Positions 8,096 to 32,700 of a stretch of DNA of 42,551 nucleotides are shown here, piece after piece (the first letter of the stretch is position 1; each line of letters opens with the position of its first letter). The notes beneath the pieces were generated by a model that saw only the letters and a list, made by a program, of their open reading frames with translations, was not told where the DNA came from and ran no database searches. This stretch comes from Bacteroidaceae bacterium. Lineage in GTDB: Bacteria; Bacteroidota; Bacteroidia; Bacteroidales; Bacteroidaceae. The stretch covers positions 1-42,551 of the forward strand of contig JAILDV010000014.1 in NCBI GenBank assembly GCA_024688885.1, read 5' to 3'. A program made the position numbers and the translations under genes.

Positions 8096-11000
8096 TTATC
8101 TGATGGCGAACTTGCAGCTGCTTTCACTGCCATCTGATGCCTTCACGCGGGCAATGTAGATGCCTGATGGAAGGCCGTTGGTGGATATGGTGGCACTGCC
8201 ATCAGCAAGATTGAGTGTCTGGCTTTGTTGCTGCAGACCTGCAATGGAGTAGATGTCAAGCTGTGCGCTTGCTGCTTTTCCTTGGATGAGGAGCTTGGTG
8301 CCAGCAAAGCGGATGCTGATTTGGTCGTCCTTTGCCAAGATTGGCTTGATATCATCCACTTCTTCAATCTTCACGCCTGTGTCTGTACCGATGAAGGTGT
8401 CATAAGAGTGGAGATCGTTTGTCTGACCGATTGTAGGATGGTTCATGACGTAGAAACTGTTGCCGCCATCAGGATAGCGTCCTACGCTTTGGTCACCCTT
8501 ATGTGTCTGATAGACGATGTGGTCTGCAAAGTGCTTGAAGGATGGGTGCTTGTCGAAGTACTCCTGATTGTTGGCAATGAATTCGTCTGACCACGTGATG
8601 ATGACCTCTTGGTTCTTTGCTTCGTCGTTGGTGAGTTTGAAGGGTGCGTGGAAGTTGGAGAAATAGATGCTTTCACGTACCACACCAAGTGGGGTGCTGG
8701 TGAACACATACTCTTCTGGATCAAGTTTGTCTGCCCAGATGATGAGTTTGCCACCAGGTTTGATGATGGTCTTCACTTCAGGGTTGCCTGCAGGAATCTG
8801 ATATTTCTGTGGCTTGTTAGGATTGTCGCTCACATAGAGACCTGCCACATTGAGTGTCATGTCGGTTGGGTTGTACAGTTCAATCCAGTCGTTCTTCTTG
8901 TAATATTCGTTCACGTAGATGGTGTTCCCGGCACTTACTTCGTTGACACGAATAGGAGCATATGGCGATTTCTCCAGATTGGTGATGAGTTCCTCGTCTT
9001 GGATAGGTTCGAAACATGCAGTGATGTCGGTGTGAACATTGTTTTTGATGACGTTTTCCAGATTGAGCTTGGCGGTACGTCTTGTACTGCTTGATTGTGA
9101 TGATACGACTTTCCACCCCGTGAAGGTGTAGCCTGCAGGAGCTTGGGCTGTGAGCACAGCGGGTGCAAATACGGTGCCTTCGAGTTTGCCTGTGGGAATG
9201 GTCACGTTGTTGAGTTTCAGGACTGCCTTGTCAAGGTCGCTCTGGATGGTGACATCAAAACTCTTCTGAAGACCGAAGAAGTTCTTCATCGCATTGATGC
9301 GACCAGCACGCTTGGACCTGTTGGTGAGGTCGTTGAGCAATGTGCGACCAGAGATTGGATGACCTGCAAGGTTATGAACACCTTCGGCATCCCATGGATT
9401 CAAACCGTCAAGAGCCAAGGCTGCTTCGCTGAAAGATGCCATGCTGTTGATAATTTGGGATGAACGCTCGGCATCGAACACACTACCTGCCACAATGCAA
9501 TAGGTGTCGATGAATTTCTGCCTGAATTCAGCTCGGGCTAACAGGTTGGAGAGAAGGTCGGTGAGGGAGGTGTCGTTGAACCAGCCGCCTCCCCAGCCCC
9601 AGCCACCCCAGCCGCCACCGCCGCTGTTTTGACCTTTGTTGGCGTCGAATTTGCTGAAGAGGTCGGTGCGCTTGAAGGCTTCATCCACGTCGAAGAAAAC
9701 GAAGTGGAACTTGCCGTCGTTGCGGTCGCGGAACAACTTGGTGTTATTGTTGTTGGTCACCCAGTCCTCCGAACCTACGTAAAGCTCAGTGGCGAAGTAG
9801 TTGCACAACTCGTCAATGTCGCAGAGGTCGCAGATTTGCTTCCAGATGTCGTCATCGGTGGGATTGGATGAGAGGTCGTTGCAGAGGTTGGTCAGCTTTT
9901 TGTATGCGATGTCGTCACCAGCTTTCACGGAATAACCACCACTGTACTCTATCTGGTCAATTTCGTCGGTGTCGATGCCATAGTTGCTGTAGGCGTAGTT
10001 CTTGTTGGTGGTCTCACGCAGATTGAACATGAACTGGTATTTACCATTGATGAACACGTGGGATGGCTGATAAACCTGACAGTCAATATAGAATCCGCTG
10101 CTTGAGAGGATTTCATTGATGGCTGCATCCACAATGCGGCATTCACAATCGTTACCACCATTGCGAACGATGATGGCCTTGTTTCTGATGTAGGGTTTCT
10201 GTGAGAAGATAGGGTAGGAGAAATATTTCTCACCATATAACTTTCCTGCTTTCAGTTTGAAGGATGGGGAAGGTGGAAAGTGACGGCTCCATCCACCACT
10301 CACCTCTAAGTCAACTCCTTGGTTGAGTGCCACACAATATTCTTTATCCTTGTTGGGCACAATCAGCTCGAAGTTGACGGGACGTTCCCATCCACGGTTC
10401 TTATTGCTTGTCCCATCTGAACCATGAACAAACTTATAGCCACCATTGCCGCCTGTACCATTTGTTCCGTCCACAAGCGCACCAATCTTGTTGTCGTAGA
10501 GGTTGTCGGGATTGGTGACGACAGACACGATGGGAAGGTAGTAGTTGCTGGAGTTATATATATAAGTATGTGTAGCCACATCGCTGGGAAGGAATCCATC
10601 CTGGTAGAGTCGGAAACGGTAAACGTAGTTCTTTTTCCCATTGATGCCGAAAACACCGTCTTGACTGGTTGCACCATTAATCAAATCAGGTGTGGTGCCA
10701 TCTGTCGTATAGCGAAGCGTAGCTCCTTCGGGTATGGTGACATGGATGTCAAAATCAGAAGTGTAAACGGTTCCCGTGCGGTCAACTACAGGAGTTGCCA
10801 GCTGTACTTCAGCAAAGATGCTGCCCTCGTTTGATTTACCCTGAGTGGGGGTGTATGTGAACCCCCATTCCGACCCTCCGTCAGTTTTGCGAGCATAGCT
10901 GGTGCGTGCAATGGCTGGAGGAACAACTTGGCTGACGAGGATGGTGCCGTTATTGTCGGAGATGAAAAGCTCGTCGCCATCAGTGTCAATCTTGAAGTCA

Positions 11001-11344
11001 ATCTGATTTTTAGCCTTGTCACTATATTCGCCTCCTGTGGAATAGTGGTCGAACCACAAGGTTTTGAAACCCTTTGCAGGAACAGAACCGTTACCTGCAG
11101 GTATGGCAACCATTTTAGGATTGGTTTTATCATAACTGATATACAATCCATTCAGGTTGATGGCTGTGTTAGTCGGGTTGTATAATTCAATCCATCCACC
11201 ATAGTTGAATGATGGGTCCATCATCATGTCGATGTTTCTCGCCATGATTTCATTAATAACCAGTTTTGATGCGGTACTTTGTGCGTTGACAACTTGGGAG
11301 CATGACAAGAGAGCCAATGCGCCCAAAATCACATTTTTCTTCAT
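8096..11344 (-). CDS. T9SS-exported CotH kinase-like protein with lamin-tail domains
   Basis: Predicted secreted or surface protein of 1082 residues. In order: signal peptide (1-22, ending VNAQ); lamin-tail domain 1 (about 25-165, INEIMARN and GGWIELYNP); a chitobiase/hexosaminidase C-terminal-like Ig module (about 190-265, LRYTTDGTTPD); a CotH domain (about 320-680); a divergent InlB-type repeat (about 695-760); lamin-tail domain 2 (about 796-960, RVNEVSAGN and NDWIELYNP); and a C-terminal T9SS type A sorting domain (about 1005-1082, ending in a Gly-Ile-Tyr-type strand pattern). CotH proteins of spore formers are atypical protein kinases; SEDWVTNNNNTKLFRD and FVFFDVDEAF resemble their Asp-containing catalytic motifs, but activity is inference. 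A Gly/Trp-rich insert (about 571-587) interrupts the CotH region. It is divergent from the phosphatase gene at 11818. Confidence 0.85.
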   Translation of the reverse strand: MKKNVILGALALLSCSQVVNAQSTASKLVINEIMARNIDMMMDPSFNYGGWIELYNPTNTAINLNGLYISYDKTNPKMVAIPAGNGSVPAKGFKTLWFDHYSTGGEYSDKAKNQIDFKIDTDGDELFISDNNGTILVSQVVPPAIARTSYARKTDGGSEWGFTYTPTQGKSNEGSIFAEVQLATPVVDRTGTVYTSDFDIHVTIPEGATLRYTTDGTTPDLINGATSQDGVFGINGKKNYVYRFRLYQDGFLPSDVATHTYIYNSSNYYLPIVSVVTNPDNLYDNKIGALVDGTNGTGGNGGYKFVHGSDGTSNKNRGWERPVNFELIVPNKDKEYCVALNQGVDLEVSGGWSRHFPPSPSFKLKAGKLYGEKYFSYPIFSQKPYIRNKAIIVRNGGNDCECRIVDAAINEILSSSGFYIDCQVYQPSHVFINGKYQFMFNLRETTNKNYAYSNYGIDTDEIDQIEYSGGYSVKAGDDIAYKKLTNLCNDLSSNPTDDDIWKQICDLCDIDELCNYFATELYVGSEDWVTNNNNTKLFRDRNDGKFHFVFFDVDEAFKRTDLFSKFDANKGQNSGGGGWGGWGWGGGWFNDTSLTDLLSNLLARAEFRQKFIDTYCIVAGSVFDAERSSQIINSMASFSEAALALDGLNPWDAEGVHNLAGHPISGRTLLNDLTNRSKRAGRINAMKNFFGLQKSFDVTIQSDLDKAVLKLNNVTIPTGKLEGTVFAPAVLTAQAPAGYTFTGWKVVSSQSSSTRRTAKLNLENVIKNNVHTDITACFEPIQDEELITNLEKSPYAPIRVNEVSAGNTIYVNEYYKKNDWIELYNPTDMTLNVAGLYVSDNPNKPQKYQIPAGNPEVKTIIKPGGKLIIWADKLDPEEYVFTSTPLGVVRESIYFSNFHAPFKLTNDEAKNQEVIITWSDEFIANNQEYFDKHPSFKHFADHIVYQTHKGDQSVGRYPDGGNSFYVMNHPTIGQTNDLHSYDTFIGTDTGVKIEEVDDIKPILAKDDQISIRFAGTKLLIQGKAASAQLDIYSIAGLQQQSQTLNLADGSATISTNGLPSGIYIARVKASDGSESSCKFAIR

Positions 11345-11430
11345 TTGATTTGATTAATAAAATTTCTTTGTTTGATGTACAAACAGGAGATAGGTTTAGT
11401 CTTCTTTTGCTTTTTACCCTTTTCAAGGCA

Positions 11431-11438
11431 CAAAGATA
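11431..11438 (-). promoter_or_regulatory. -7 box of the first CotH gene
   Basis: TATCTTTG on the minus strand, about 87 nt before the ATG. The -33 region is not a clear match. The 473-bp divergent region 11345-11817 otherwise holds no credible gene. Confidence 0.5.
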
Positions 11439-11713
11439 TGCATTTTATTATAAATAGAGTGAATAATTTTCCCTATTTCCATAAAAATAAGTGATGTAAA
11501 CACCACAATAAACATCAAGAAGGGTGGGTGTGTTGACATTATTGGCACTGAAAACATAAAAAATCACAAAAAGAGCACCGTTCGAGTTGTAAGGAGGAAT
11601 AGAATGACCTCATAATTGCAAAAAAGAACCCATTTGGATGCTATTTTATCCTTTTCGTGTATTTTTTTTGAATATAATCCGCGAAAAATGGAAGAGTGTA
11701 TAGTTTTATTTCG

Positions 11714-11721
11714 TATCTTTG
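11714..11721 (+). promoter_or_regulatory. -7 box of the phosphatase gene
   Basis: TATCTTTG on the plus strand, predicting a leader of about 90 nt that is A/T-rich and without a Shine-Dalgarno sequence. No TTG at the usual -33 distance. Confidence 0.5.
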
Positions 11722-11817
11722 CTAACTGAAAACTAACAATACCTACCAATATTCTATCCGAGAAATTATCTTTTTTTATTATTATCAATTTTATTACTAC
11801 CAAATTACTACTAAAAC

Positions 11818-14800
11818 ATGAAACAGAAAACCAAATGGTTCATTACCTCCTTGATGCTGGTAATGGTTTGTTTGCAGGCTACTGCACAGCCTGAGGGCAA
11901 GTTCTATCTCTACAATTCCGCTAAGGCGTTCTTGAGCCGTGCAGCGAATGGTAATGCCACAGTTGACAAGTTCGGCATTCCTGTCGAAGTGAAGAAGAGT
12001 GACGCAGGTTGTTCACTCATGTTCCTCGACAATGGTCGTTATGTCTCTCAGAGTGGTTCTACGGTCAAGGGGGATGAGACAAGTGCTGCTTATGCTACCA
12101 TCACAGCTGATGGTGACAACTACACAGTGGCACTGAAAGAAGGTGAGTTCCTTGGAGTTGACGGCAGCAATGGTGCACTTGCCGTTAAGGCTGATGCTTC
12201 TGCTTCAGGCTTCAATGCAAAATGGCAGTTGCTGACTCAGGCAGAGCGTGACGTGATTGTTGCTGACATGGAACTGGCACAGATTGAAGCTGTTGCCAAG
12301 GCAGCGGGTATCACGCTTGCTGTTGGTACAGACAAGATGACTCAGTTTACTGAGGCTCTGAAGGCGTTCTCGTCTGAAGATGCTACAGACCTGATTTCTA
12401 ACCCGACATTGGCTACAAGTCAAGATGGTTGGACAGTGAATGTGTTGGCAGGAAACAACAACATCGACTACAAGAGTCAGTATGCAATGACGCTGTATCA
12501 GAACACTGCTTTGGAGATTTCGCAGTTCCTTGAAGTGCCTAATGGTATTTACAAGGCAACCATTCAAAATACATATCGTTCTTCAAAGCGTGAAACATTG
12601 ACAGCGTATTCATTGAGTGAAGATCATCTCAGCATTTGTAATGCTTATTTCGCTGCCAATGAAAATCAGGCACAAGCTGTTGAATGGTCCAAGATTCGCA
12701 CTTCTGCAACATTGCCATACTCCCGCGGAGACTTTGAAAATTTCACGACCAATTCTAAGTACACCACAACAGTTTGGGCATATGTGAATGATGGTAAGCT
12801 TACATTGAAGTATGTTGTACCTTCTATCAACAATTCTGGCGGTGACTACGACCTCGACTGGTTCACTTTCGCTAACGTGAAACTGACGCGCTATTTCCAG
12901 CCTTCAGAAACAACTGAAGAATTTAACCTTTACGATGAGATTGTCACTCAATCATCAGATCCAAGTGCGTACAATGCTGTAAAGCAAGCCTTCATGGATG
13001 ATTTTGCAAAAGGCACCATGACGGAAGAAGAAGTGACTGCCGCAAAGGCTGCGTTGAAGGCTGAGCTCTTCAAAATGATGAAGACGGTTCCTGCTCTCTG
13101 GGGTCAGTATGACATCACCAGCCTCCTCACCAATTCCACACTCGACAGCAATATCAAAGGCTGGAAATCTTCTCCAGTGAATGCCTTCAAGGTTGCCAAC
13201 AAGCTTGTGGAGAGCTTCGGAAGCAGAACTGTATCAAGCTTCTCTCAGGTAATCAGCGATATGCCAGCTGGTGAATATACCGTTAAGGTGCAGGGCTTCT
13301 ATCGTAATGGCGAGTGGAAGCAGGCTTTGGCTAACTACGAGCGTGGTAAGGATAATGTGAAGGCTGCCATCTATGTGGATGACGTGGCTAATAAACAGCC
13401 ACTGAAGAGCATTTTTGCTGATGGCTGTTACATGCTGGAAGGTAAGCATCACAAGTCTGCAGATGTATTTGCTGTTGTAAGCGGTAAGGGTTATCCTCAC
13501 AGTCACTATATCGATGCCAACAACCGTTCAAACGCTATCAAGACTCCAGACATTGCCAAGCAGGCAATTGACCATGGTCACTACTGGAACGAGATGGTTG
13601 CCACTCACGCAGCTGATGGTGACCTCACTATCGGTATCACTTTGGAAACAGGTGCTCCTGCTGAATCATGGATAGTTATTGACAACTTCCGTCTCTACTA
13701 CGGAACTCCAGCTCCTGTTATTGTTAATCATATAGAAGGAGTTGCACTTCCACCTGCAGTATTTGACGACACTCATGCTCCTGTGATACTGAAGAAACAG
13801 TTCAAGGCTAATGAGTTGACTCCATTGGCAGTTCCATGTGACATCCCTGCATCAAAGTTCAAGGCTGTCTATGCGATTGGTTCACTTGATGAGGAAACTA
13901 AGACTGCAGTGCTTTGTCCAGTTGACCACGTGAGTGCCAACGTTCCTTGCTACGTTGTGGCAAATGAGGATGTTGATGAAATCAAAATTGATGAACCCAC
14001 TTTGATTGCAGCTGCACAGCCTGACCAACTTCCTGTGATGTGGGATGGTGGACTTGTTTACCGAGTTGCTGACTCCTTCACTTGGAAGGCTATCACCTTG
14101 TCTGAAAATGAAGTGGATGCATCATACTTCACGAATTTTGAATATGTTGATGCCAAGAACATGGATTTCGTTGCCAACATCGAAAACTTCCGTGCTCGTC
14201 AGTATTTGCAGAACACCAAGTATCCAGAGCCTGATACGAAATCAGTCATTGAAAACTACTTCAAGCCTGCTCCTCCACGTCTTGATATTCCTCACAATAT
14301 TGGTGTGCCAGTTCCGGCAGACAAGGTGAAGGATGCTGTTGTGAAGTTCGGTTTCAAGAGCGACTTCAGCGATGCTCAGAGCCGTATCATTCTCGATGGT
14401 TCAGATATGGCATACATGCCAAACCTCATTCCTGGCAACACCTATTACTTCAAGGTTGAGGCAGGTGGCGAAGTGCTGACTCAAGGTAAGTTTGCAGTTG
14501 AAGGCCCTGTTCGTATGATTTACGCTCCAAGTATCAATAACATCCGCGACCTTGGTGGTTGGACAGTTCAGGATGGTAAAAAGGTTCGTTACGGACTTAT
14601 CTACCGTGGTGGTGAGGCAAATGGTCTCCATCCTTCTGTGGAAGAAGACCGTCAAACCCTGATTGACCTTGGTGTTGGTGCTGAAATCGACCTCCGTAAG
14701 GATAATAACTACGATAGCGGTAATGGTCAGGTGGGTAAATGTGCTTTCGGATTCCCCAAAGCTGACTACTTCTTCAAGGAAGGTGGTTACGATTGTAAGC

Positions 14801-15354
14801 TTGAGCACTTGACTGCTGCTGCATCAAAGGCTCGCTACAAGCAGTGGTTCCCATTCATCGTTAATCACATCAAGGAAGGCAAGGCTGTTTACTACCACTG
14901 TGTATGGGGTGCTGACCGTACAGGACTTGTATCTGTATTGCTCGAAGGTCTTCTTGGTCTTACACAAGAACAGATGAACCTTGAGTATGAGCTGACATCT
15001 CTGTCATTTGCAGGTCTTCGTCCAAAGAGTGGATATGCTGATGGTGACCACCAGAAGCTGATTGAGAAGATTAAGACTTACGAGGGTGAAACACTTCGCG
15101 ACAAGTTCGATACCTATTGGACAAAGGAAGTGGGTGTCAGTCAGGAACTCATTGACGAATTCCGCAGCATTATGCTTGTGGGCGAATCAGATGAGCCAGA
15201 TGCTATCGAAGATTTGACCGTTCAGGATAAATCAGAAATCAAGGCTGTTTACAGCATTACAGGTACTGAATTACCTCTCAGCGCACTCAATCAGGCAGGC
15301 ATCTACGTAGTGAAGTACAAGAATGGTGCATCAAGAAAGATTGTTGTGAAATAA
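11818..15354 (+). CDS. T9SS-exported multidomain protein with PtpB/LipA-type tyrosine/dual-specificity phosphatase domain
   Basis: Predicted secreted protein of 1178 residues. Signal peptide 1-24; an N-terminal beta-rich, lectin-like segment (about 25-145); two jelly-roll-like modules (about 191-361 and 432-629, each opening with an N-P/S-T-L, G-W pattern and closing with a DxFxF/DNFRLYY pattern); linker and fibronectin-like region (to about 900); then a phosphatase domain. That domain has RDLGG at 910-914 and a P-loop HCVWGADRTG with C1028 and R1034. The Asp before the Arg of the P-loop (HCxxGxDRTG) is the hallmark of the Y_phosphatase3 family (M. tuberculosis PtpB, Listeria LipA), which acts on phosphoproteins and phosphoinositides. 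A short T9SS sorting domain ends the protein (about 1140-1178). All key residues are present, so it is likely active; its substrate is unknown. Neighbouring exported CotH kinase-like proteins are candidate partners. Confidence 0.85.
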   Translation: MKQKTKWFITSLMLVMVCLQATAQPEGKFYLYNSAKAFLSRAANGNATVDKFGIPVEVKKSDAGCSLMFLDNGRYVSQSGSTVKGDETSAAYATITADGDNYTVALKEGEFLGVDGSNGALAVKADASASGFNAKWQLLTQAERDVIVADMELAQIEAVAKAAGITLAVGTDKMTQFTEALKAFSSEDATDLISNPTLATSQDGWTVNVLAGNNNIDYKSQYAMTLYQNTALEISQFLEVPNGIYKATIQNTYRSSKRETLTAYSLSEDHLSICNAYFAANENQAQAVEWSKIRTSATLPYSRGDFENFTTNSKYTTTVWAYVNDGKLTLKYVVPSINNSGGDYDLDWFTFANVKLTRYFQPSETTEEFNLYDEIVTQSSDPSAYNAVKQAFMDDFAKGTMTEEEVTAAKAALKAELFKMMKTVPALWGQYDITSLLTNSTLDSNIKGWKSSPVNAFKVANKLVESFGSRTVSSFSQVISDMPAGEYTVKVQGFYRNGEWKQALANYERGKDNVKAAIYVDDVANKQPLKSIFADGCYMLEGKHHKSADVFAVVSGKGYPHSHYIDANNRSNAIKTPDIAKQAIDHGHYWNEMVATHAADGDLTIGITLETGAPAESWIVIDNFRLYYGTPAPVIVNHIEGVALPPAVFDDTHAPVILKKQFKANELTPLAVPCDIPASKFKAVYAIGSLDEETKTAVLCPVDHVSANVPCYVVANEDVDEIKIDEPTLIAAAQPDQLPVMWDGGLVYRVADSFTWKAITLSENEVDASYFTNFEYVDAKNMDFVANIENFRARQYLQNTKYPEPDTKSVIENYFKPAPPRLDIPHNIGVPVPADKVKDAVVKFGFKSDFSDAQSRIILDGSDMAYMPNLIPGNTYYFKVEAGGEVLTQGKFAVEGPVRMIYAPSINNIRDLGGWTVQDGKKVRYGLIYRGGEANGLHPSVEEDRQTLIDLGVGAEIDLRKDNNYDSGNGQVGKCAFGFPKADYFFKEGGYDCKLEHLTAAASKARYKQWFPFIVNHIKEGKAVYYHCVWGADRTGLVSVLLEGLLGLTQEQMNLEYELTSLSFAGLRPKSGYADGDHQKLIEKIKTYEGETLRDKFDTYWTKEVGVSQELIDEFRSIMLVGESDEPDAIEDLTVQDKSEIKAVYSITGTELPLSALNQAGIYVVKYKNGASRKIVVK

Positions 15355-15394
15355 CCCATCGCTTACATACTTATATATATAAGGTGTAAAAACC

Positions 15395-15440
15395 AAGCGG
15401 GCAAAGGTTGCAATACTTTTGCCCGCTTTCTTTGTTTTCT
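15395..15440 (+). terminator. Terminator of the phosphatase gene
   Basis: A perfect 11-bp stem AAGCGGGCAAA/TTTGCCCGCTT (15395-15405, 15418-15428) is followed by TCTTTGTTTTCT. A 14-bp perfect palindrome CTTATATATATAAG (15370-15383) lies just before it. Confidence 0.85.
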
Positions 15441-15477
15441 TCTATTGAAGTGATGGGGATGAAACAGGAATGGACAT

Positions 15478-15516
15478 AAAAAAGGGCTACCCCGTTTCTC
15501 ACGAAAAAGAATAGCC
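15478..15516 (-). terminator. Probable galE terminator
   Basis: On the minus strand GGCTA/TAGCC (15512-15516, 15485-15489) closes a hairpin followed by CTTTTTT. A second stem TTCTGGTA/TACCAGAA (15551-15558, 15562-15569) lies between it and the galE stop. Confidence 0.55.
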
Positions 15517-15622
15517 ACAACACAAACACAAAATAAAACACGACAAACGATTCTGGTACCCTACCAGAACGTTGCTCTGGTACGCATCGGGGTTTGTGTT
15601 AATGCCCCGTCACGTTAGATTT

Positions 15623-16657
15623 CTATTGAACGCCGTCTGCACGGAGTTTCTCTTGCCACTTCCACGCAGAGCGCAGGATATCGTCAAGCGGTGTGTCAGC
15701 ACTCCAGCCTAACACCTTGTTTGCTTTGTCGACATTGCCCCAAATAGCCTCGATGTCGCCTTCACGACGTGGTGCATATTCCCATGGGAGCTTCACGCCA
15801 GTTGCCTTCTCAAAGCCTTCCACGATTTCAAGAGTGGAGTAGCCATGACCAGTACCGATGTTGAACACCTCAACAGGGTCAGTGTCTTGTTCGAGCACGC
15901 GCTGCATAGCCTTCACGTGTGCTTTAGCGAGGTCAACTACATAGATGTAGTCGCGAATGCAAGTCTTGTCGGGGGTGTTGTAGTCGTTGCCAAACACCTT
16001 CAACTGCTTACGAATGCCGATGGCAGTTTGAGTGACAAATGGTATGAGGTTCATCGGAACTCCATTTGGCAACTCACCGATGAGTGCGGATGGATGTGCA
16101 CCGATGGGGTTGAAATAGCGAAGGATGATGGACTTGATAGGTGCTCCAGAATGGATATAGTCCTGTATGATTTCCTCGTTAATCTGCTTGGTGTTTCCGT
16201 ATGGAGACAAGGCTTTCTGGATAGGTGCCTGCTCAGTCACGGGAAGGTTCTCCTTGGTGGGCTGTCCATACACTGTGCATGAAGAGGAGAAGATGATGCC
16301 CTTACCACCATATTTGGTCATCAACTCAAGCACGTTCATGAGTGAGTTGAGGTTGTTGCGGTAGTAGAGCAGGGGTTTCTCCACAGATTCTCCCACTGCC
16401 TTTGATGCAGCGAAGTGGATACAGCCTTTGATGGAGTATTTCTTGAATACGGCTTCTGTTGCCGCAAAGTCATTCAAATCAACTTTTTCAAATGCAGGAC
16501 GTATGCCTGTGATTTTCTCAATGCCGTCAAGAACTGAGGCATTGGAGTTAGATAAGTTATCGATGATGACCACATCGTAGCCTGCTTGCTGCAGTTCCAC
16601 AGTCGTGTGTGAACCAATGAAGCCGGTTCCGCCAGTCACAAGGATTGTTTCTTTCAT
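15623..16657 (-). CDS. galE: UDP-glucose 4-epimerase
   Basis: Interconverts UDP-glucose and UDP-galactose in the cytoplasm, feeding galactose use and surface glycan synthesis. The 344-residue short-chain dehydrogenase has the NAD-binding GGTGFIG (9-15), a catalytic Ser in SSSCTVYG (about 124-126), and the Y153-x3-K157 pair in SPYGNTK. Length and motifs fit GalE well. No Leloir-pathway or capsule genes flank it; instead it lies between the phosphatase gene and the larger CotH gene. Its promoter lies inside a long inverted repeat, which may affect its expression. Confidence 0.95.
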   Translation of the reverse strand: MKETILVTGGTGFIGSHTTVELQQAGYDVVIIDNLSNSNASVLDGIEKITGIRPAFEKVDLNDFAATEAVFKKYSIKGCIHFAASKAVGESVEKPLLYYRNNLNSLMNVLELMTKYGGKGIIFSSSCTVYGQPTKENLPVTEQAPIQKALSPYGNTKQINEEIIQDYIHSGAPIKSIILRYFNPIGAHPSALIGELPNGVPMNLIPFVTQTAIGIRKQLKVFGNDYNTPDKTCIRDYIYVVDLAKAHVKAMQRVLEQDTDPVEVFNIGTGHGYSTLEIVEGFEKATGVKLPWEYAPRREGDIEAIWGNVDKANKVLGWSADTPLDDILRSAWKWQEKLRADGVQ

Positions 16658-16694
16658 GTCCGTGTATCTTTTAATGTTTGGTGTTAGTTAATTG

Positions 16695-16782
16695 TTTTGA
16701 ATGACGAAGATTGATTTTAATTTGTTCTTCTGTTTTCGTTTTGCAAATATAGAACAAATAATTCAATCTTCGTCATTCAAAA
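16695..16782. repeat. Nested inverted repeat enclosing the galE promoter
   Basis: Outer arms 16695-16714 and 16763-16782 are perfect 20-bp reverse complements (TTTTGAATGACGAAGATTGA). Inner arms TTTGTTCT (16721-16728) and AGAACAAA (16751-16758) are also perfect. The loop is 22 nt. The predicted galE -7 box lies at the inner edge of the right arm. Confidence 0.9.
16744..16751 (-). promoter_or_regulatory. galE -7 box
   Basis: TATATTTG on the minus strand. A transcript would start near 16738-16741, inside the inverted-repeat loop, giving a leader of about 80 nt carrying only one repeat arm. No clear -33 TTG. Confidence 0.5.
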
Positions 16783-16834
16783 ATCAATTTTTTTCGTCAA
16801 AAGTGTGCTTTACCTCGCAAAACACCTCTTTTTC

Positions 16835-19800
16835 TTACTTTATGATGAATTTGATGTGGCTCTCATCGCCATCTTCGGTGCTTGCCTTGACAATGTAGAT
16901 GCCCTTTGGAAGGTCAGCCACGTTGACAGATACAAACCTGTTTCCTGCATTGGCGAAAGTAGATGCCTCCATCTTCATGCCCGACATGCTATATACGTCA
17001 ACACTTCTGATGGCTGCGTCTTCGCTCTTGATGTTGATTACTCCACCTACGTAAGCGATGGTGATGCTGCCTTCCTTGTTGTAGGACTTGATGGCATCAG
17101 GTGTTGGGTCGAGCGACTTGACATAGAGCGTGTCGTATGAACCAATCATGTTTGCCTTGGCAATGGTCGGGTTGTTCATCACATACACATCGTTGGCACC
17201 GTCAGGATAGCGTCCGTATGTTTCTGTGCCGAGATGCTGCTCATATTCCAGCTTGTCTGTATAACTGTCGGTGGAGATGATGACCTCACCTCCCTTCGTT
17301 TCCAGCTTGAAGTTGGTATGGATGTCTGCACCGATGATGTCGAGCTTGTCACACCACACCACTTTATACCCATGTGCGGGGATGATGGTGTTGAGTGTCA
17401 CGTTGTTGGTAGGCACTTGGAAGTCATGACGCTTCGCTGTCTTCGACTTGTCAGTGACGAGCGAGATGGTCATGCCCTTGATGTCGATGTCAGCATCAGT
17501 GGTGTTGTACAGCTCTATCCAGTCGTTCTTCTTGAAGTAGTCGTTGATGTAGATGGAGTTAGCTGCGCTGACCTCGTTGATGCGTACAGGCGTGATGCCT
17601 TCATCCAGTATGTCTATGTCAGAAAGACTCTCAAACACGGCGACGATATTCTGTGAGCCGGAAGAGGGGAGCGTGTATTCTGCCTCCTTCGACACGAAGT
17701 CGTTCGCATTGACCTTCTCAATCTTCGAGAGGGAAGCCTCCCAAAGAATGTCTGTGGATGTCGAGTTGTTGTTGTGCACTTCCACAGCAATCACGTTCTT
17801 GCCTTTCTTGAAGAGGGAACCACTCAGCATCATCTGTCCACTGTCTGGATTGCCTTGAGCATGTGTGGTTGAATAACTATCATAAGTGACAGTGCCGGAA
17901 GGCATATTATATCGTCCAGCTTCCACACCATTTATATATACAATCATGCCATCGTCAATGATGTAGTCGAGGATGAATTCGTCACTTGTTGCTGGAGCAT
18001 TATCCAGGTTGAATGACTTTCGGAAATAGTAGGTGGGGCGTTTGTTGTTGGAATCATTGCCGTAATCAAGAGTCGTGACGACACTGCTCTTGCTGTAACC
18101 GAGTGGTGCGTTTCCAGATGACCAATTGGATGTGCTGTAGTTTGCTGCCTTCCAATTCTTTCCGTCCAAAGAACCCCTGTCATAGTAAAACCAGCTCTCT
18201 CCAGTAGCAAATATGCTGGTGGTTTTGGTGGTGCCCGCATTTCGCCAGCCTTCAAAGCGATATCCGGCAGGTGCTGTAGCTTTCAGGGTAACAGGAGCGA
18301 ACAGATAACCATCAAATTCGCCGTAAGGCAGTTCCAAGCCATTGACCATCAACTTGGCATTGGCAACACCGTTTGAAGAAATTTCCACCTTCTGACGTTC
18401 CACACCTCCGATATTCATGTGCGAGCAGTTCTGCAATGCCATCGTGGCGCCATTGTTGCGAGAACCCAACTTGCTCATCACGTCGTATGCTGTGTTCCAA
18501 GGATTCACATAGTTTTCAGTAGACGCATAGCTGGCCATCTCGTTCACAATCTCCTCCACCTTATATTGCTGGAACACCGAACCTCCGACAATACAGAAGG
18601 CATCGATGAACTGTTTGCGGAACTTCTCATTCATCAGCAGATTCTTGAAGAGCGTCACCAGCTCAATCTGCTTGGTGATGCGCTTTCCCTCAATATTTTC
18701 ATTGTTCGAATAGTTAAATCCGTGCAGGGTGTCAAATCTGTAATTCTCCTTATTGAAGAATTGGTTGAAGATGTCACCGGCACTCAAATTGAAGGAACCG
18801 TCAAGGTCAAAGAGCACAAAATGGAATTTGCCATCATTCTTGTCACGGAAACCCTTCGCGTTGTTTTGTGGCCAGTCCCAGTTGCCGATGTGGAGTTCCA
18901 CTGCCATGTAGTTGATGAATTCATCAATCTCAAGCATCTTCTTGATCTCCTCATAGGTCTCCTCGTCATCCGCATTCTTGCTCAGCTCCATCAAGTGTTT
19001 GAAGCTCTCTTTCGTACCTTCCATCTGCACATAACCAGAGTCTGGACAAATTTCAAACTGATCCATCTCATCCGTGTCAATGCCATAGTTGGCATAGGCA
19101 TAATGCTTATTGTTAGGCTCACGCATGTTGAGCACGGCATAATGAGAACCATTGATGAACACATGCACGGGTTGCCATGCCTGATAGTCCACATAGAGAC
19201 CGCTGCGCGCCACCACCTGTTGGATAGCGGCATCCTTGATGCGGCAACTGCCATCGTTACCGCCATTGCGGATTTGCAGTGTCTTATTCTTGATGTAAGG
19301 TTTCTCGTCAAAGAATTGTGCCTGGAAGAAATTGTCCATGTCGTAGGTCTTTGTGGCCTTCAGTTTGAACGATTTAGGATTGGATGAACGAGTCCATCCA
19401 CCACAGATGGAGAGGTCGCACTCCTGAGAAATAAGATACTCATTGTTATCCGTGATGAATTCAAACGAGACAGGTCTGTCCCAATCCATGTTCCAGTTGC
19501 AGTTGCTTGTCTGTCCATTACCGGGGCGCCCATTAGGACCCTTCTTGAACACGCCATATTCCTCAGAGTTGAGATTGTCCGACTTCGTCACCAAAGAGAT
19601 GATGGGGAAGGGGTAGGTGCGGTCATTCTTGATGAATGAGCGTGTCACCACCTGTGAAGGCAGATATCCGCTTTGGAACACACGGAAGCGGTAGCATGTC
19701 GTCTTATTCACCGAGAAGATACCAGTCTTCGACACCTCTCCGTTCGTCTGTGTGGGTGCCGTTCCGTCAGTTGTGTATTTCAGCGTTGCCCCCTTCGGGA

Positions 19801-21235
19801 AACTTACACTCACCTGCAAAGTGCCGGAGAAGAGCTGTCCATCCTTGTCCACCACAGGAGCGTCAAGTTGTGCTGTGGCAAATCCTCCGTTGGCTTGGTT
19901 GGAAGCGCCTGGTGATGGGTTGCCCGTATAGCCCCATTCTGTACCGCCATCAGTCTTTCGTGCATACGAAGTTCGTGCAATGGAAGCGGGATACTCCTGC
20001 TGGGCAATGATTTTGGTGCCGTCAGAGATGATGATGACACCACCATCGCAATCCAGTTTGTCATCAATTTGGCGATAAGAAGCCTGTGTCCACACCTCAT
20101 GGTGGTCAAAGTTCAACAGGGCATAACCCTTTGCTGGCAAAGCGCCATAATTGCTCAACAGATGGTTCTTCTTCAGGTTGTTCGGATTGTCGCTGATGTA
20201 GAGATTCCCCAAAGTGACGCTCTTGTCAGTTGGGTTGTACAGTTCCACCCAGCTGCCATAGTTGAACGAAGGGTCAAGATACACATCCACATTTGCCGCC
20301 ATGATTTCGTTGATGATCAGGTTTTCCGCAGTAGGGCTCTCACGCTTCACAGTCACCCTGCATTGTGCCTTCTTGCCGCTGCCATCCTTCGCAGTCGCAA
20401 GGATGTAGCACACGCCAATGCCCACAGCAGTGATTTGTCCTTTGCTGTCCACAGTTGCTACGCTCTCTTTCGTGGAAGACCAGTTCACATTCCTGTAGGT
20501 GGCATTTTCAGGAGCCACATTGGCTGTCAGGTCATGCATCTCCGATTGGAACATTTCAACAGATGTTTCAGAGAGGGTGATGGATGTTACACTAATCAAT
20601 GTGCCCCAATACTCCAGTTTCCAGTTGTCCAGACAAGTCCAGTCCCATTCCAGCACATTGTCTTTTCTGATACCGATTGTCAGCAAGCCATCATTCTCCA
20701 CCTCACAATCCACATAGTTGTTGTAGTAACCCTTCTCAAACCAGTAGTGGGCAGCTTCCATGTTGTTGGGTATGTAGCGTGTTCCATCCTGCGTGTTTAT
20801 TTCGCTGTATCCACCTCCCAGTGGACTTTCCAAAGCTGCTGACGAAGCAAAAGCGATGGGAGAGTCATAGTAGTTCTTGCTTGAGCGTGAATACAGTCGG
20901 GCATATTGGAAATCCTCCATGTTGCTTGCATGTGAATAGCTGTAGTCTTGTTGAGCAGAGCCACAGCGGAAGAAGGCATTCAAGCTCACACGATAAGTGC
21001 CGGCTTTCAGTCCTGCCACATTTTGGTAGGTGTTATAGCTCTTTTGGTAATGCTCTGCATTCTCCACGGGGTCGGCAGAACCAAATCCAGTTCCTTCCCA
21101 TCCCGTTGTGAGGTCGTTGTTGTTGAATCTTGGGTTAATAATATGCGCGTCAGTCACGTCAATCCAAGTCTGCTGTGCAAAGCTGGCAAGCGATGCACAG
21201 GATAGCATAAAAGCAGTAAGTGTTAGTCTTATCAT
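16835..21235 (-). CDS. Giant T9SS-exported CotH kinase-like protein with lamin-tail, Big_2 and jelly-roll domains
   Basis: Predicted secreted protein of 1466 residues. In order: signal peptide (MIRLTLTAFMLSCASLASFA); a jelly-roll-like module (about 22-215, INPRFNN to LDNWKLEYWG); a bacterial Ig-like Big_2 domain (about 215-300); lamin-tail domain 1 (about 304-440, INEIMAANVD); a chitobiase C-terminal-like Ig module (about 460-535, LKYTTDGTAPT); a CotH domain (about 540-960, with NWDWPQNNAKGFRD and FVLFDLDGSF); an InlB-type repeat; a second beta-sandwich (about 1050-1200); lamin-tail domain 2 (about 1215-1385); and a T9SS sorting domain (about 1389-1466). The core order matches the CotH protein at 8096-11344, so the two are paralogues. 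Start 21235 is preferred because the 19-codon extension overlaps the upstream gene. The upstream DUF4421 gene stops only 10 nt before it, indicating co-transcription. Confidence 0.85.
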   Translation of the reverse strand: MIRLTLTAFMLSCASLASFAQQTWIDVTDAHIINPRFNNNDLTTGWEGTGFGSADPVENAEHYQKSYNTYQNVAGLKAGTYRVSLNAFFRCGSAQQDYSYSHASNMEDFQYARLYSRSSKNYYDSPIAFASSAALESPLGGGYSEINTQDGTRYIPNNMEAAHYWFEKGYYNNYVDCEVENDGLLTIGIRKDNVLEWDWTCLDNWKLEYWGTLISVTSITLSETSVEMFQSEMHDLTANVAPENATYRNVNWSSTKESVATVDSKGQITAVGIGVCYILATAKDGSGKKAQCRVTVKRESPTAENLIINEIMAANVDVYLDPSFNYGSWVELYNPTDKSVTLGNLYISDNPNNLKKNHLLSNYGALPAKGYALLNFDHHEVWTQASYRQIDDKLDCDGGVIIISDGTKIIAQQEYPASIARTSYARKTDGGTEWGYTGNPSPGASNQANGGFATAQLDAPVVDKDGQLFSGTLQVSVSFPKGATLKYTTDGTAPTQTNGEVSKTGIFSVNKTTCYRFRVFQSGYLPSQVVTRSFIKNDRTYPFPIISLVTKSDNLNSEEYGVFKKGPNGRPGNGQTSNCNWNMDWDRPVSFEFITDNNEYLISQECDLSICGGWTRSSNPKSFKLKATKTYDMDNFFQAQFFDEKPYIKNKTLQIRNGGNDGSCRIKDAAIQQVVARSGLYVDYQAWQPVHVFINGSHYAVLNMREPNNKHYAYANYGIDTDEMDQFEICPDSGYVQMEGTKESFKHLMELSKNADDEETYEEIKKMLEIDEFINYMAVELHIGNWDWPQNNAKGFRDKNDGKFHFVLFDLDGSFNLSAGDIFNQFFNKENYRFDTLHGFNYSNNENIEGKRITKQIELVTLFKNLLMNEKFRKQFIDAFCIVGGSVFQQYKVEEIVNEMASYASTENYVNPWNTAYDVMSKLGSRNNGATMALQNCSHMNIGGVERQKVEISSNGVANAKLMVNGLELPYGEFDGYLFAPVTLKATAPAGYRFEGWRNAGTTKTTSIFATGESWFYYDRGSLDGKNWKAANYSTSNWSSGNAPLGYSKSSVVTTLDYGNDSNNKRPTYYFRKSFNLDNAPATSDEFILDYIIDDGMIVYINGVEAGRYNMPSGTVTYDSYSTTHAQGNPDSGQMMLSGSLFKKGKNVIAVEVHNNNSTSTDILWEASLSKIEKVNANDFVSKEAEYTLPSSGSQNIVAVFESLSDIDILDEGITPVRINEVSAANSIYINDYFKKNDWIELYNTTDADIDIKGMTISLVTDKSKTAKRHDFQVPTNNVTLNTIIPAHGYKVVWCDKLDIIGADIHTNFKLETKGGEVIISTDSYTDKLEYEQHLGTETYGRYPDGANDVYVMNNPTIAKANMIGSYDTLYVKSLDPTPDAIKSYNKEGSITIAYVGGVINIKSEDAAIRSVDVYSMSGMKMEASTFANAGNRFVSVNVADLPKGIYIVKASTEDGDESHIKFIIK

Positions 21236-21245
21236 ATTGGTGTTG

Positions 21246-22373
21246 TTAGTTTGTTCTATTCTTGTATTGAGGTTTCTTCCATACGTTGACACCCAGCAGG
21301 TATTTCAGAGTGCCATAGGTGTTGGTCAGACCGAACTTGTTCTGTCGGTAGTCATATGTGTGGGTTTCGAGAATCAGACCGCTGAACAATCTTGTGTTGT
21401 TCCAGAAGAGTGACATGCGCAGATTCAAGTCTGTTGAGACATTGTTCAGGATGGAATGTCCCATATCCTTTGCTTCTGTGATGTTTGACCTTCGATACCC
21501 GATGCTGGGGATGAACGAGATGGCAAAAAGCACATTGCGCCCCAACACCCAGTTGTAGTTATATCCAACGCTCACGCTGTAGTCATTGTAGTTCACCTTG
21601 TTGAACAACAGCGTTGAGTCGATGTCCTCCTTGATGTAGTCAGGCAGTTCCTCCTTGTCGAAGGTGATGCGCTGGTGGTTATATTGGAACCCTACACTCC
21701 AGCTGCCACAACTCTTTCTCTGCACCGCATTGGCTCCAAAAGCAGCAGGCCATGAGAAGTGGCGGTTGTTGAACATATACAAGACACTGACTCCATTGCA
21801 TCTGGAATCCAAACCATGAAATGTCCTTTCCTTTCCCTTTGTCTCAATGCCGCTCACACTCCTGATTTCAGCACCCTTACCGGAATTGAACATATAGTAT
21901 TCAGCAAAGAATTTCGCAGTGTGTATGACAAAAGTCTGTCTCAGAGACGTGCCGTTAGTCTTTCCTGCCTTAATGCCCAGGTCATTCAAGTTCCACACCG
22001 CACCATAACCGAAGATGCTGTAATAGACAAATCCTCCAAGAATGACAGAAGGGTCTGACTGAATCACCATCGTGTTGTTTGTCTGCGATGACCGCAAGAA
22101 ATAGTAGTCATGCCAGTATGACACCTCCACCTGAGCCGTCAGGTTATACTTTTGAGGCGTGACATAGCTGGTGTCACATCCCATGAAGAAATTCTCCACA
22201 CCCATCAAGAGACGCTGCGGCAAAGGAGGCCTTTTCTTCTGCTCAGTCACCACCACACTGTCCAGAGTCTGTTCATCAAATGTTTCACCCACCCCCAAAG
22301 AGTCCTGAGCATCAGCAGTCATGCATAGCGCCATCACAAACGCCACCACACACCTAATTCTTTTTTCTACCAT
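21246..22373 (-). CDS. DUF4421-type outer-membrane beta-barrel-like protein
   Basis: Probable outer-membrane protein of 375 residues and unknown function. It has a signal peptide (about 1-22, ending TADA) and, after FFMGCDTSYVTPQKYNLT (about 62-79), a series of amphipathic strands with alternating aromatic residues, ending in an aromatic-rich strand. This fits the Bacteroidetes DUF4421 family by recollection; I cannot run a profile search. It is 10 nt upstream of the CotH gene and 40 nt downstream of the oxidoreductase gene on the same strand. Co-transcription with CotH suggests a role in that protein's anchoring or function, which is inference. Confidence 0.7.
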   Translation of the reverse strand: MVEKRIRCVVAFVMALCMTADAQDSLGVGETFDEQTLDSVVVTEQKKRPPLPQRLLMGVENFFMGCDTSYVTPQKYNLTAQVEVSYWHDYYFLRSSQTNNTMVIQSDPSVILGGFVYYSIFGYGAVWNLNDLGIKAGKTNGTSLRQTFVIHTAKFFAEYYMFNSGKGAEIRSVSGIETKGKERTFHGLDSRCNGVSVLYMFNNRHFSWPAAFGANAVQRKSCGSWSVGFQYNHQRITFDKEELPDYIKEDIDSTLLFNKVNYNDYSVSVGYNYNWVLGRNVLFAISFIPSIGYRRSNITEAKDMGHSILNNVSTDLNLRMSLFWNNTRLFSGLILETHTYDYRQNKFGLTNTYGTLKYLLGVNVWKKPQYKNRTN

Positions 22374-22413: not shown

Positions 22414-23409
22414 CTAAATCTTCCCCAATATCCTGTCCATCACCCAATTCGTAGGCGTGGCACTCACTGAGTCACAGTCACAAATCTCCTCACCCTTCAA
22501 ATGCTTCACCACCTTCTCAATCAATCCCATCTGCACGTGCGGAGGGTTGGGTACAATGATTTGTTCTTGCCCACGCTCAGTGTCCAGCACGATAGGTTCA
22601 TAGTCAAACACCGAGAACACAATCTTACCCTTTGTACCCACAATCGAGATTCTGTCCCTTCGAGCCGATTCATGCGCCACGAAACACCACGACGCACTGC
22701 CCGTCAGACCATTGCCGAAACGGAAACATGCATTGAACGTGTCCTCCACCTTATACAGTCCCGCCATGTTCTGGCAGAAACCCTCAGCCTCCACAATCGG
22801 ACCAAACCAATATTGCAGCAAGTCAATCTGATGCGACGCAAGGTCATAGAAATAACCGCCACCACCTGCCACTTCAGGTTGCAATCTCCATGGCATCTCC
22901 CTTCCGCTCTGATAGTCCAGTTCTCTCGGTGGCACAGCAAAACGAATCTGCACCGTCAACACATCCCCAATGTCTCCACTCATCACAATCTGCTTCGCCT
23001 TCTCGAAATAGGGCAGGTAGCGTCGGTAGAAAGCGACAAAGCAAGGAATTCCCGTCAGTTGGCTGATGCGGTTCACCCTCAGACAGTCCTCATAGCTTGC
23101 CGCCAATGGTTTCTCGATATAGGCAGGCTTTCCCGCCTTCATCGCCATGATGGCAAAGGTGGTGTGAGAGGATGGGGGAGTGGCGATGTACACGGCAGTC
23201 ACATCAGGGTCGCTCACCAACGCTTGGGCATCAGCATAATACTTCCTGATGCCATGACGTTCTGCATAAGACTTGGCTTTAGCTTTGTCGCGACTCATCA
23301 CCGCCACCACTTCGCTTCCTTCAATCTTACCGAATGCAGGACCGCTCTTCTTCTCCGTCACCTCACCGCAACCAATGAAGCCCCACTTGACTATCTTCTG
23401 ATTTTCCAT
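22414..23409 (-). CDS. Gfo/Idh/MocA family NAD(P)-dependent oxidoreductase
   Basis: Cytoplasmic oxidoreductase of 331 residues, probably acting on a sugar or inositol derivative. The Rossmann motif GFIGCGEV is at 10-17 and the family Lys lies in the EKP motif (99-101, AYIEKPLAAS). The C-terminal beta-sheet domain is complete. The frame is open 14 codons upstream, but ATG 23409 is chosen because the N-terminus then fits the family and the extension reaches the promoter -7 box. It leads a same-strand run with the DUF4421 and CotH genes (40-bp and 10-bp gaps). The substrate cannot be assigned. Confidence 0.9.
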   Translation of the reverse strand: MENQKIVKWGFIGCGEVTEKKSGPAFGKIEGSEVVAVMSRDKAKAKSYAERHGIRKYYADAQALVSDPDVTAVYIATPPSSHTTFAIMAMKAGKPAYIEKPLAASYEDCLRVNRISQLTGIPCFVAFYRRYLPYFEKAKQIVMSGDIGDVLTVQIRFAVPPRELDYQSGREMPWRLQPEVAGGGGYFYDLASHQIDLLQYWFGPIVEAEGFCQNMAGLYKVEDTFNACFRFGNGLTGSASWCFVAHESARRDRISIVGTKGKIVFSVFDYEPIVLDTERGQEQIIVPNPPHVQMGLIEKVVKHLKGEEICDCDSVSATPTNWVMDRILGKI

Positions 23410-23448
23410 TATTTTGACGTGTAGATTGGTGCAAATCAATTCAAGTTG

Positions 23449-23479
23449 CAAAATTACGACAAAAAATCCAATCCGTCAA
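23449..23479 (-). promoter_or_regulatory. Promoter of the oxidoreductase - DUF4421 - CotH run
   Basis: On the minus strand TTTG (from 23480), 20 nt, TAATTTTG (23449-23456): an exact Bacteroidetes promoter about 40 nt before ATG 23409. A GGAGTTAA repeat pair lies at 23628-23644; otherwise 23480-23676 appears empty. Confidence 0.75.
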
Positions 23480-32646: not shown

Positions 32647-32670
32647 GGTGGTCAAAACACAAAATCGTGA

Positions 32671-32700
32671 CAAAATTACACAAATTCCCTCAACTAACAA
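32671..32700 (-). promoter_or_regulatory. Promoter of the regulator - lptE - TPR - secG operon
   Basis: On the minus strand TTG (32698-32700), 19 nt, TAATTTTG (32671-32678): a consensus primary-sigma promoter, 24 nt before the ATG. A 10-bp inverted repeat ATTCCCTCAA/TTGAGGGAAT (32684-32693, 32718-32727) straddles the -33 element. Confidence 0.75.

What the first reader, a model, noticed from the sequence alone, without database searches (positions are those of the whole stretch)
8096..22373. Candidate surface phosphorylation system: two exported CotH kinase-like proteins around an exported PtpB-type phosphatase
Seen: two paralogous giants (8096-11344 and 16835-21235) with signal peptide, CotH domain, two lamin-tail domains and T9SS sorting domain lie on either side of an exported protein (11818-15354) with an intact HCx5R P-loop (C1028, R1034), also T9SS-sorted. 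Known: CotH domains are atypical protein kinases, and PtpB/LipA-type phosphatases act on phosphoproteins or phosphoinositides. Inference: opposing enzymes displayed outside the cell. A shared target outside the cytoplasm, where ATP is scarce, would be novel.
Basis: partly seen in the sequence, partly recalled or inferred. Interest (0 to 1): 0.75.

Follow-up and report, generated by a model that had tools for sequence, protein, structure and literature searches.

The report
Paired surface kinase-like and phosphatase genes
A gut bacterium carries two exported proteins with a kinase-like domain next to an exported phosphatase, and in some relatives the two kinds of domain sit side by side or are even fused in one protein, hinting that bacteria may add and remove phosphate outside the cell.

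Summary
8096-11344 and 16835-21235 (both -) encode exported CotH-kinase/lamin-tail proteins; 11818-15354 (+) encodes an exported PF13350 phosphatase with an intact CX5R loop. Both catalytic Asp of CotH are kept in both CotH proteins.

Corrections: the P-loop is HCVWGADR, so the Lys that defines PtpB/LipA-type enzymes is absent; the phosphatase's sorting tail scores below cut-off; the 8096 protein has lost a near-invariant N-lobe Lys; an epimerase gene lies inside the cluster.

Beyond the window, the CotH-phosphatase link recurs. The CotH1-phosphatase pair is kept in 7 of 45 genomes of the genus. Two exported proteins, far apart on the phosphatase tree, fuse both domains (L103; L244/L248). Other lineages have overlapping or abutting genes. 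Fused or adjacent CotH: 6 of 50 phosphatase clusters, about 0.3 expected. The link is not universal: 12 of 19 members of this phosphatase's own cluster have no CotH in the DNA held, and genome-level co-occurrence shows nothing.

Best reading: an extracellular add/remove-phosphate module with an unknown target. Activity, phosphate donor and target are unshown. Both fusions carry Glu for one catalytic Asp, so a binding role of CotH there stays open.

The parts
8096..11344 (-). CotH1 (P0001, 1082 aa): signal-like N-terminus, LTD (best stretch aa 22-140) and a second LTD, CotH domain (aa 347-642; DNA 9419-10306), T9SS tail (aa 1021-1081). D527 and D552 match CotH D228 and D251; the near-invariant N-lobe Lys is Ser.
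11345..11817 (.). 473-bp intergenic stretch between divergently oriented CotH1 and phosphatase genes; no match to the Bacteroidetes-type promoter pattern used (pattern recalled); sigma-70-like sites in it, at a number near chance for the region
11818..15354 (+). Exported phosphatase (P0002, 1178 aa): signal-like N-terminus, about 900 aa without a Pfam match over cut-off (its last part modelled as a fibronectin-like beta domain), PF13350 domain (aa 904-1119), T9SS-like tail below cut-off
14896..14919 (+). P-loop HCVWGADR (H1027-R1034): Cys, Asp and Arg kept, Lys of HCXXGKDR replaced by Ala
   Evidence: motif from PMC3091653 passages
15395..15428 (+). terminator-like hairpin (14 pairs) after the phosphatase gene
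   Evidence: 17 such sites found in the region, mean 13.7 in shuffles
15623..16657 (-). NAD-dependent epimerase (P0004, galE-like by recall), part of the conserved cassette
16835..21235 (-). CotH2 (P0003, 1466 aa): signal-like N-terminus, Big_2, chitobiase-type domain, two LTD (best stretch aa 1222-1299), CotH domain (aa 609-915; DNA 18494-19411), T9SS tail. D787 and D810 match D228 and D251 with the same spacing of 23; N-lobe Lys kept.
21246..22373 (-). DUF4421 protein (P0005), 10 bp upstream of CotH2 on the same strand, likely co-transcribed; beside CotH2 in L036, L037, L038, L041 and L042 too
22414..23451 (-). GFO/IDH/MocA-family oxidoreductase (P0009), outer edge of the conserved cassette

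Best explanation
The locus encodes an extracellular phosphate-adding and phosphate-removing module. CotH1, CotH2 and the PF13350 phosphatase are exported through Sec, and the CotH proteins (probably the phosphatase too) are carried to the cell surface by the type IX system. CotH2 is a probable kinase-fold enzyme that phosphorylates Ser/Thr-bearing surface proteins or glycoproteins. The phosphatase removes phosphate from the same class of target through its Cys1028/Arg1034 loop. CotH1, which lacks a conserved N-lobe Lys, is either a weakened kinase or a substrate-binding partner tied to the phosphatase. Shown: domains, intact key residues, sorting tails on the CotH proteins, recurrent linkage and fusions. 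Inferred: signal peptides (by eye), kinase activity outside the cell, phosphate donor, target, and that both enzymes share it.
For: CotH and PF13350 profiles well over cut-off. CotH profile matches CotH structure 5JD9 at E 1.7e-19; Foldseek puts 5JD9/5JDA first even from a weak model. Both catalytic Asp kept in P0001 and P0003; among 25 CotH lying fused to or within 8 kb of a PF13350 gene, the D228 place is Asp in 22 and the D251 place in 25. Phosphatase model (pLDDT 78) is closest to C. difficile PTP and MptpB; Asp before the loop Arg in 136 of 139 relatives. Cassette order kept while outer flanks change. CotH1-type matches seen only in the same 7 of 45 genus genomes, although CotH2 relatives are in 44 of 45 (searched with CotH2). 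Two fusions, signal-like start + PF13350 + CotH: L103 and L244/L248. Abutting or overlapping genes in L048/L049, L257/L258 and L102. Fused or adjacent in 6 of 50 clusters, 0.3 expected, in four separate parts of the tree. The short, mostly Lys-type PF13350 genes have none: 0 of 17 within about 1.5 kb.
Against: 12 of 19 members of the window phosphatase's cluster have no CotH in the DNA held (flanks 2-20 kb); most of the 50 clusters have none. Genome-level presence is not associated: outside the genus 9 of 16 PF13350 genomes have CotH, about what 30 of 56 overall predicts (my count from the lists). Both fusions and the second CotH of L103 have Glu for the D228 Asp. All six CotH1 aligned lack the N-lobe Lys, and one of six CotH2 (L036) has His there. 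Among 399 family genomes searched with the fused protein no further fusion is in the listed matches, a capped list; among 199 relatives of G450, 2 have one, G450 included. Two of seven other phosphatase neighbours scanned are GH31 and GH30, pointing to glycans. ATP is scarce outside cells (general knowledge). The control of 20 C10-peptidase loci had 0 CotH, but against 14 of 139 it is too small to decide (Fisher p 0.22).
Confidence: 0.48

Rival explanations
1. Nutrient or glycan handling: the phosphatase strips phosphate from phosphorylated glycans, nucleotides or dietary phosphoproteins, and the CotH domain serves in binding or holding the substrate; no reversible modification of the cell's own surface.
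For: PF13350 relatives next to GH31 in L082 and next to GH30 in L088 (2 of 7 non-CotH neighbours scanned). CotH2 carries a chitobiase-type domain and a below-cut-off beta-galactosidase-type match. LTD-CotH proteins occur among cellulosomal proteins (PMC6083626 passages), and a review says CotH may be structural or regulatory there (PMC12484212 passages). A dockerin ends the L244 fusion.
Against: Catalytic Asp kept in CotH2 and most linked CotH. No glycoside hydrolase among the 26 window ORFs scanned.
Confidence: 0.27
2. Pseudokinase reading: CotH domains paired with the phosphatase are catalytically weak scaffolds that present substrate to it.
For: Glu at the D228 place in both fusions; N-lobe Lys lost in CotH1 and replaced by Arg, Asn, Met or His in several other linked CotH.
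Against: P0003, L048/L049, L192 and L256 keep all four compared residues. The Glu form is widespread (also 11 of 17 stand-alone CotH, mostly picked as relatives of the L103 CotH), so it may be functional rather than decayed.
Confidence: 0.25
3. Chance or neutral neighbourhood: abundant surface-protein genes (about 6.6 CotH per genome) happen to lie next to phosphatase genes and are inherited together.
For: Cassette species are close relatives; 12 of 19 members of the cluster lack the link. Genome-level co-occurrence is flat. In genus g64, CotH 5-11 kb away lies across unrelated genes.
Against: Two fusions and four adjacent clusters in four parts of the tree; Poisson P 7e-7 at observed CotH density, 3e-4 if surface genes cluster threefold.
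Confidence: 0.2

Closest known systems
CotH spore-coat protein kinases (B. subtilis CotH; B. cereus CotH 5JD9/5JDA)
   Same: PF08757 domain, both catalytic Asp with the same spacing in CotH2
   Different: Exported and T9SS-tagged with lamin-tail domains; paired with a phosphatase; CotB/CotG-like Ser-rich substrates were not looked for
ALP/MptpB-LipA atypical lipid/protein phosphatases (PMC3091653); C. difficile PTP 8DHI/8DHJ
   Same: PF13350, CX5R, P-loop Asp, closest solved folds
   Different: Loop Lys that the paper ties to substrate binding is Ala; large multidomain exported protein
Cellulosomal CotH and LTD-CotH proteins (C. thermocellum Cthe_0239: LTD, LTD, Fn3, CotH; PMC6083626)
   Same: Extracellular CotH with lamin-tail domains
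   Different: Dockerin-bearing instead of T9SS-tagged; no phosphatase partner in the passages read
Fam20C-type secretory-pathway kinases
   Same: PMC7821199 calls CotH distantly related to them; phosphorylation of exported proteins
   Different: Eukaryotic, ATP supplied inside the secretory pathway (recalled); here no known ATP supply

Membership tests
CotH kinase family (PF08757) | Profile score over curated cut-off | tested here: met
   82.8 and 96.2 bits, cut-off 23.8
CotH kinase family (PF08757) | Catalytic Asp equivalent to D228 and D251 | tested here: met
   P0001 D527/D552, P0003 D787/D810; role from PMC7821199 passages
CotH kinase family (PF08757) | Near-invariant N-lobe Lys of the KK-x-aromatic motif (its role is not taken from any call) | tested here: inconclusive
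   Kept in P0003; Ser in P0001 and lost in all six CotH1 aligned, P0001 included
CotH kinase family (PF08757) | Protein kinase activity | not testable with these tools
   needs purified domain
ALP (MptpB/LipA) phosphatases | CX5R with catalytic Cys and Arg | tested here: met
   C1028, R1034
ALP (MptpB/LipA) phosphatases | Catalytic Asp in the P-loop | tested here: met
   D1033
ALP (MptpB/LipA) phosphatases | Conserved Lys in HCXXGKDR | tested here: not met
   HCVWGADR; definition from PMC3091653 passages
Type IX secretion cargo | C-terminal sorting domain TIGR04183 over cut-off | tested here: inconclusive
   met for P0001 27.6 and P0003 34.7, not for P0002 11.3 bits, cut-off 23
Type IX secretion cargo | T9SS machinery in the genome | tested here: met
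   SprA E 2e-217; other T9SS parts not searched
Dedicated kinase-phosphatase pair | Conserved linkage in relatives | tested here: inconclusive
   6 of 50 clusters fused or adjacent, two of them fusions, but 12 of 19 in the window's own cluster unlinked
Dedicated kinase-phosphatase pair | Shared substrate | not testable with these tools
   no substrate known

The most novel reading that the evidence does not exclude
Gut and rumen Bacteroidales run reversible phosphorylation outside the cell: surface-displayed CotH-fold kinases and PF13350-type phosphatases, encoded together and sometimes fused into one protein, write and erase phosphate on surface or extracellular targets, using an extracellular or non-ATP phosphate donor.
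Probability: 0.33. Interest if true: 0.85.

Novelty: new variant of a known kind. Interest (0 to 1): 0.6.

Why it matters
CotH kinases are known from spores (PMC7821199 passages), from fungi where some act in virulence (PMC9973265 passages) and, without a clear role, from cellulosomes (PMC12484212 passages). A gene link and two natural fusions with an exported phosphatase give a concrete hint of what exported bacterial CotH domains may work with, and make it directly testable whether bacteria phosphorylate and dephosphorylate targets outside the cell, and with which phosphate donor. My paper searches found no report of a CotH-phosphatase link (open-licence library only, mostly seen as listings).

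Tried and rejected
Rejected or weakened. (1) Genome-level co-occurrence as evidence: flat outside the genus; CotH is in all 45 genus genomes and in 51 of 51 further phosphatase-bearing genomes, so it is too common to inform. (2) CotH near tandem phosphatases in genus g64 (L198, L202, L204, L209): 5-11 kb away across unrelated genes on the other strand, not counted. (3) Neighbouring 875-aa ORF in L074 suspected as CotH: it is MutS. (4) phmmer of P0003 and of a second CotH against solved chains gave no CotH match or only E 0.015; the alignment profile did better. (5) AlphaFold model of the CotH2 domain is weak (pLDDT 48); it supports the fold only through its top Foldseek hits. (6) First local CotH model had four of five seed pieces on the wrong strand and was thrown away, redone. 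(7) The promoter pattern gave nothing in the CotH1-phosphatase gap. (8) The C10-peptidase control was meant to have 40 loci, one per genome; only 20 were obtained, 0 with CotH.

Counting notes. The 139 phosphatase domains are unique sequences of at least 120 aa in the loci held; they come from four searches, whose listings were partly capped, not from a random draw. Most short high-scoring PF13350 loci (L007-L023) are not in the 139 because only about 1.5 kb flanks were held (two, L010 and L023, were fetched wider and are in); checked apart, 0 of 17 have a CotH there, and 11 of the 17 have the Lys-Asp loop by pattern. Five of the 139 have under 2 kb of flank in all. The L248 fusion was found with the L103 fusion as query, which favours fusions. 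The L103 fusion fills most of a 4,155-bp contig; the L248 one lies in a 223 kb contig. L038 was marked 'adjacent' by hand in the tree labels because its CotH1 gene is cut by the contig end (gene order). Expected adjacency uses 6.6 CotH per genome (counts and rounded genome sizes retyped into) and an assumed 1,150 bp per gene. The local CotH model can miss very divergent CotH, so 'none' means none found by it. P0001 itself was not used as a genome query; CotH1-type matches were recognised by score, length and place in the CotH2 search, where some other genus members have further CotH2-like paralogs. G016 shows CotH1 and phosphatase only, its contig ending there; its CotH2 lies on another contig.
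Full report
What is there. The window is contig C19 of a 3.03 Mb genome, 98 percent complete. Relatives with named records are mostly rumen and gut 'Bacteroidaceae/Prevotellaceae/Bacteroidales' metagenome genomes. P0001 and P0003 each have a CotH domain, two lamin-tail stretches and a T9SS tail over the NCBIfam cut-off; P0002 has a C-terminal PF13350 phosphatase domain and a T9SS-like tail that scores below cut-off. The genome has five CotH matches and one PF13350 match, this one, and SprA.

Key residues. A profile of ten CotH domains finds the B. cereus CotH structure 5JD9 at E 1.7e-19 and no other solved sequence at E up to 1. The two catalytic Asp (D228 and D251 in B. subtilis, PMC7821199 passages) are 23 residues apart, as in 5JD9 in that alignment and in P0003 (D787, D810); P0001 has them too (D527, D552) with a two-residue insertion. 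The N-lobe Lys that most CotH aligned share is kept in P0003 but is Ser or Ala in all six CotH1 aligned, and His in one of six CotH2. P0002 has C1028, D1033 and R1034, but its loop reads HCVWGADR; the Lys of the ALP signature HCXXGKDR, which that paper ties to substrate binding (PMC3091653 passages, abstract included), is Ala. Of 139 relatives collected, 10 have Lys there and 107 have Ala followed by Asp, so the window protein belongs to an Ala-type majority of the collected set. Its AlphaFold model (mean pLDDT 78) is closest to C. difficile PTP and MptpB. The CotH2 model is poor (pLDDT 48), though its two best hits are CotH.

The cassette. CotH1, phosphatase, epimerase, CotH2, DUF4421 and oxidoreductase lie in the same order in G002, G003, G025, G026 and G006 (CotH1 cut by the contig end there); G016 shows CotH1 and the phosphatase at a contig end. 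Genes outside match the window only in the nearest relative, G025. With the window's own genome the CotH1-phosphatase pair is in 7 of 45 genus genomes. A search with P0003 finds relatives of CotH2 in 44 of 45, but CotH1-type matches (45-47 percent identity, E about 1e-172, partial in G006) only in those same 7; P0001 itself was not used as query. G044 and G033 carry more distant phosphatases without a CotH nearby and show no CotH1-type match. CotH1 and the phosphatase thus seem to come and go together inside the genus. They are neighbours, so one island gained once would look the same.

Beyond the cassette. A scan of GTDB contigs with the phosphatase alignment brought in L103 (Prevotella sp. 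UBA3837): one ORF with PF13350 and CotH domains (90.5 and 109.8 bits), a signal-like stretch after an inner Met and a T9SS-like end by eye, beside a second CotH gene. A search of 199 genomes around it found one more fusion, in G452 on a 223 kb contig: signal-like start, PF13350 (96.7 bits), CotH (83.7 bits), dockerin (44.5 bits). The same query over 399 family genomes listed no further fusion (capped list). In L048/L049 a phosphatase gene overlaps a following CotH-LTD gene by 14 bases; in L257, L258 and L102 phosphatase and CotH genes abut or overlap tail to tail, with two CotH genes in L258. L192, L253 and L256 have CotH within 4 kb.

How much is chance. Among 139 unique phosphatase domains in 50 clusters at 60 percent identity, CotH is fused in 2 clusters and directly adjacent (gap up to 500 bp) in 4. 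With 338 CotH in 51 phosphatase-bearing genomes, adjacency by chance is about 0.6 percent per gene, 0.3 clusters expected; Poisson P 7e-7, or 3e-4 if surface genes cluster threefold. On a quick tree the fused or adjacent cases lie in four separate parts, with at least 7 changes of state (quick method, long branches flagged, both fusions among them). The short, mostly Lys-type PF13350 loci left out of that count have no CotH within about 1.5 kb, 0 of 17. A control of 20 C10-peptidase loci has no CotH but is too small by itself (Fisher p 0.22). Against the link: 12 of 19 members of the window's own cluster have no CotH in the 2-20 kb of flank held, most clusters have none, and genome-level co-occurrence outside the genus is flat (9 of 16 against 30 of 56, counted by me).

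How it may work. Shown: sorting tails, intact catalytic residues in CotH2 and in the phosphatase, recurrent linkage and fusion. Inferred: CotH2 transfers phosphate to Ser/Thr on surface targets, the phosphatase removes it, CotH1 supports the phosphatase. The donor is the weak point: ATP is scarce outside cells (general knowledge), and I know of no donor system here. Both fusions and the second CotH of L103 carry Glu in place of D228. The same Glu occurs in 11 of 17 stand-alone CotH examined, mostly chosen as relatives of the L103 CotH, with a shared local motif; it is a subfamily and may be functional, but these domains could equally be binding modules. Of seven non-CotH neighbours of phosphatase relatives scanned, one is GH31 and one GH30, which keeps a glycan or nutrient role alive.

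What is known. CotH kinases of spores (PMC7821199 passages); CotH and LTD-CotH proteins in cellulosomes, with unclear role (PMC6083626 passages; PMC12484212 passages); ALP phosphatases (PMC3091653 passages). I found no paper on a CotH-phosphatase link in the open-licence library (listings only, except the passages named). The 2016 paper on CotH kinases is not held, and anything beyond the passages cited is recalled.

Verdict. New variant of a known kind; interest 0.6.

Noticed in passing
window 23677-24201 (-): A low-molecular-weight protein tyrosine phosphatase (PF01451) lies just beyond the oxidoreductase at the cassette edge; among the cassette neighbourhoods held it was seen only in the nearest relative, G025 (L041/L063).
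   Followed up: no
window 27892-28416 (-): FHA domain protein (phosphothreonine-binding fold, recalled) next to a CCDC81-type HU/SPOR protein and two tandem AraC-type regulators.
   Followed up: no
L103, L244/L248, L250, L251, L260-L262, L264-L266, L210-L212: A CotH subfamily with Glu instead of the D228 Asp (often a local motif E-[SA]-F-x-G-S): 11 of 17 stand-alone CotH examined plus both fusions and L103's second CotH.
   Followed up: partly
L082 and L088: Multidomain PF13350 proteins directly next to a GH31 gene (L082) and a GH30 gene (L088); L086 and L100 have similar-sized neighbours that were not scanned.
   Followed up: no
L251, L255, L257-L259: Phosphatase and/or CotH genes repeatedly sit just after nadA-like genes (NadA confirmed in L257; similar C-termini in L251, L255, L258, L259), as if a preferred insertion place.
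   Followed up: no
L198, L202, L204: Pairs of exported-looking phosphatases with a small lipoprotein-like gene between them (in L209 beside them), in a conserved setting with fatty-acid-synthesis-like genes (by eye) and a CotH gene 5-11 kb away.
   Followed up: partly
window 31381-32700 (-): Sigma-54-type activator followed by LptE and, after one ORF without a Pfam match, SecG genes.
   Followed up: no
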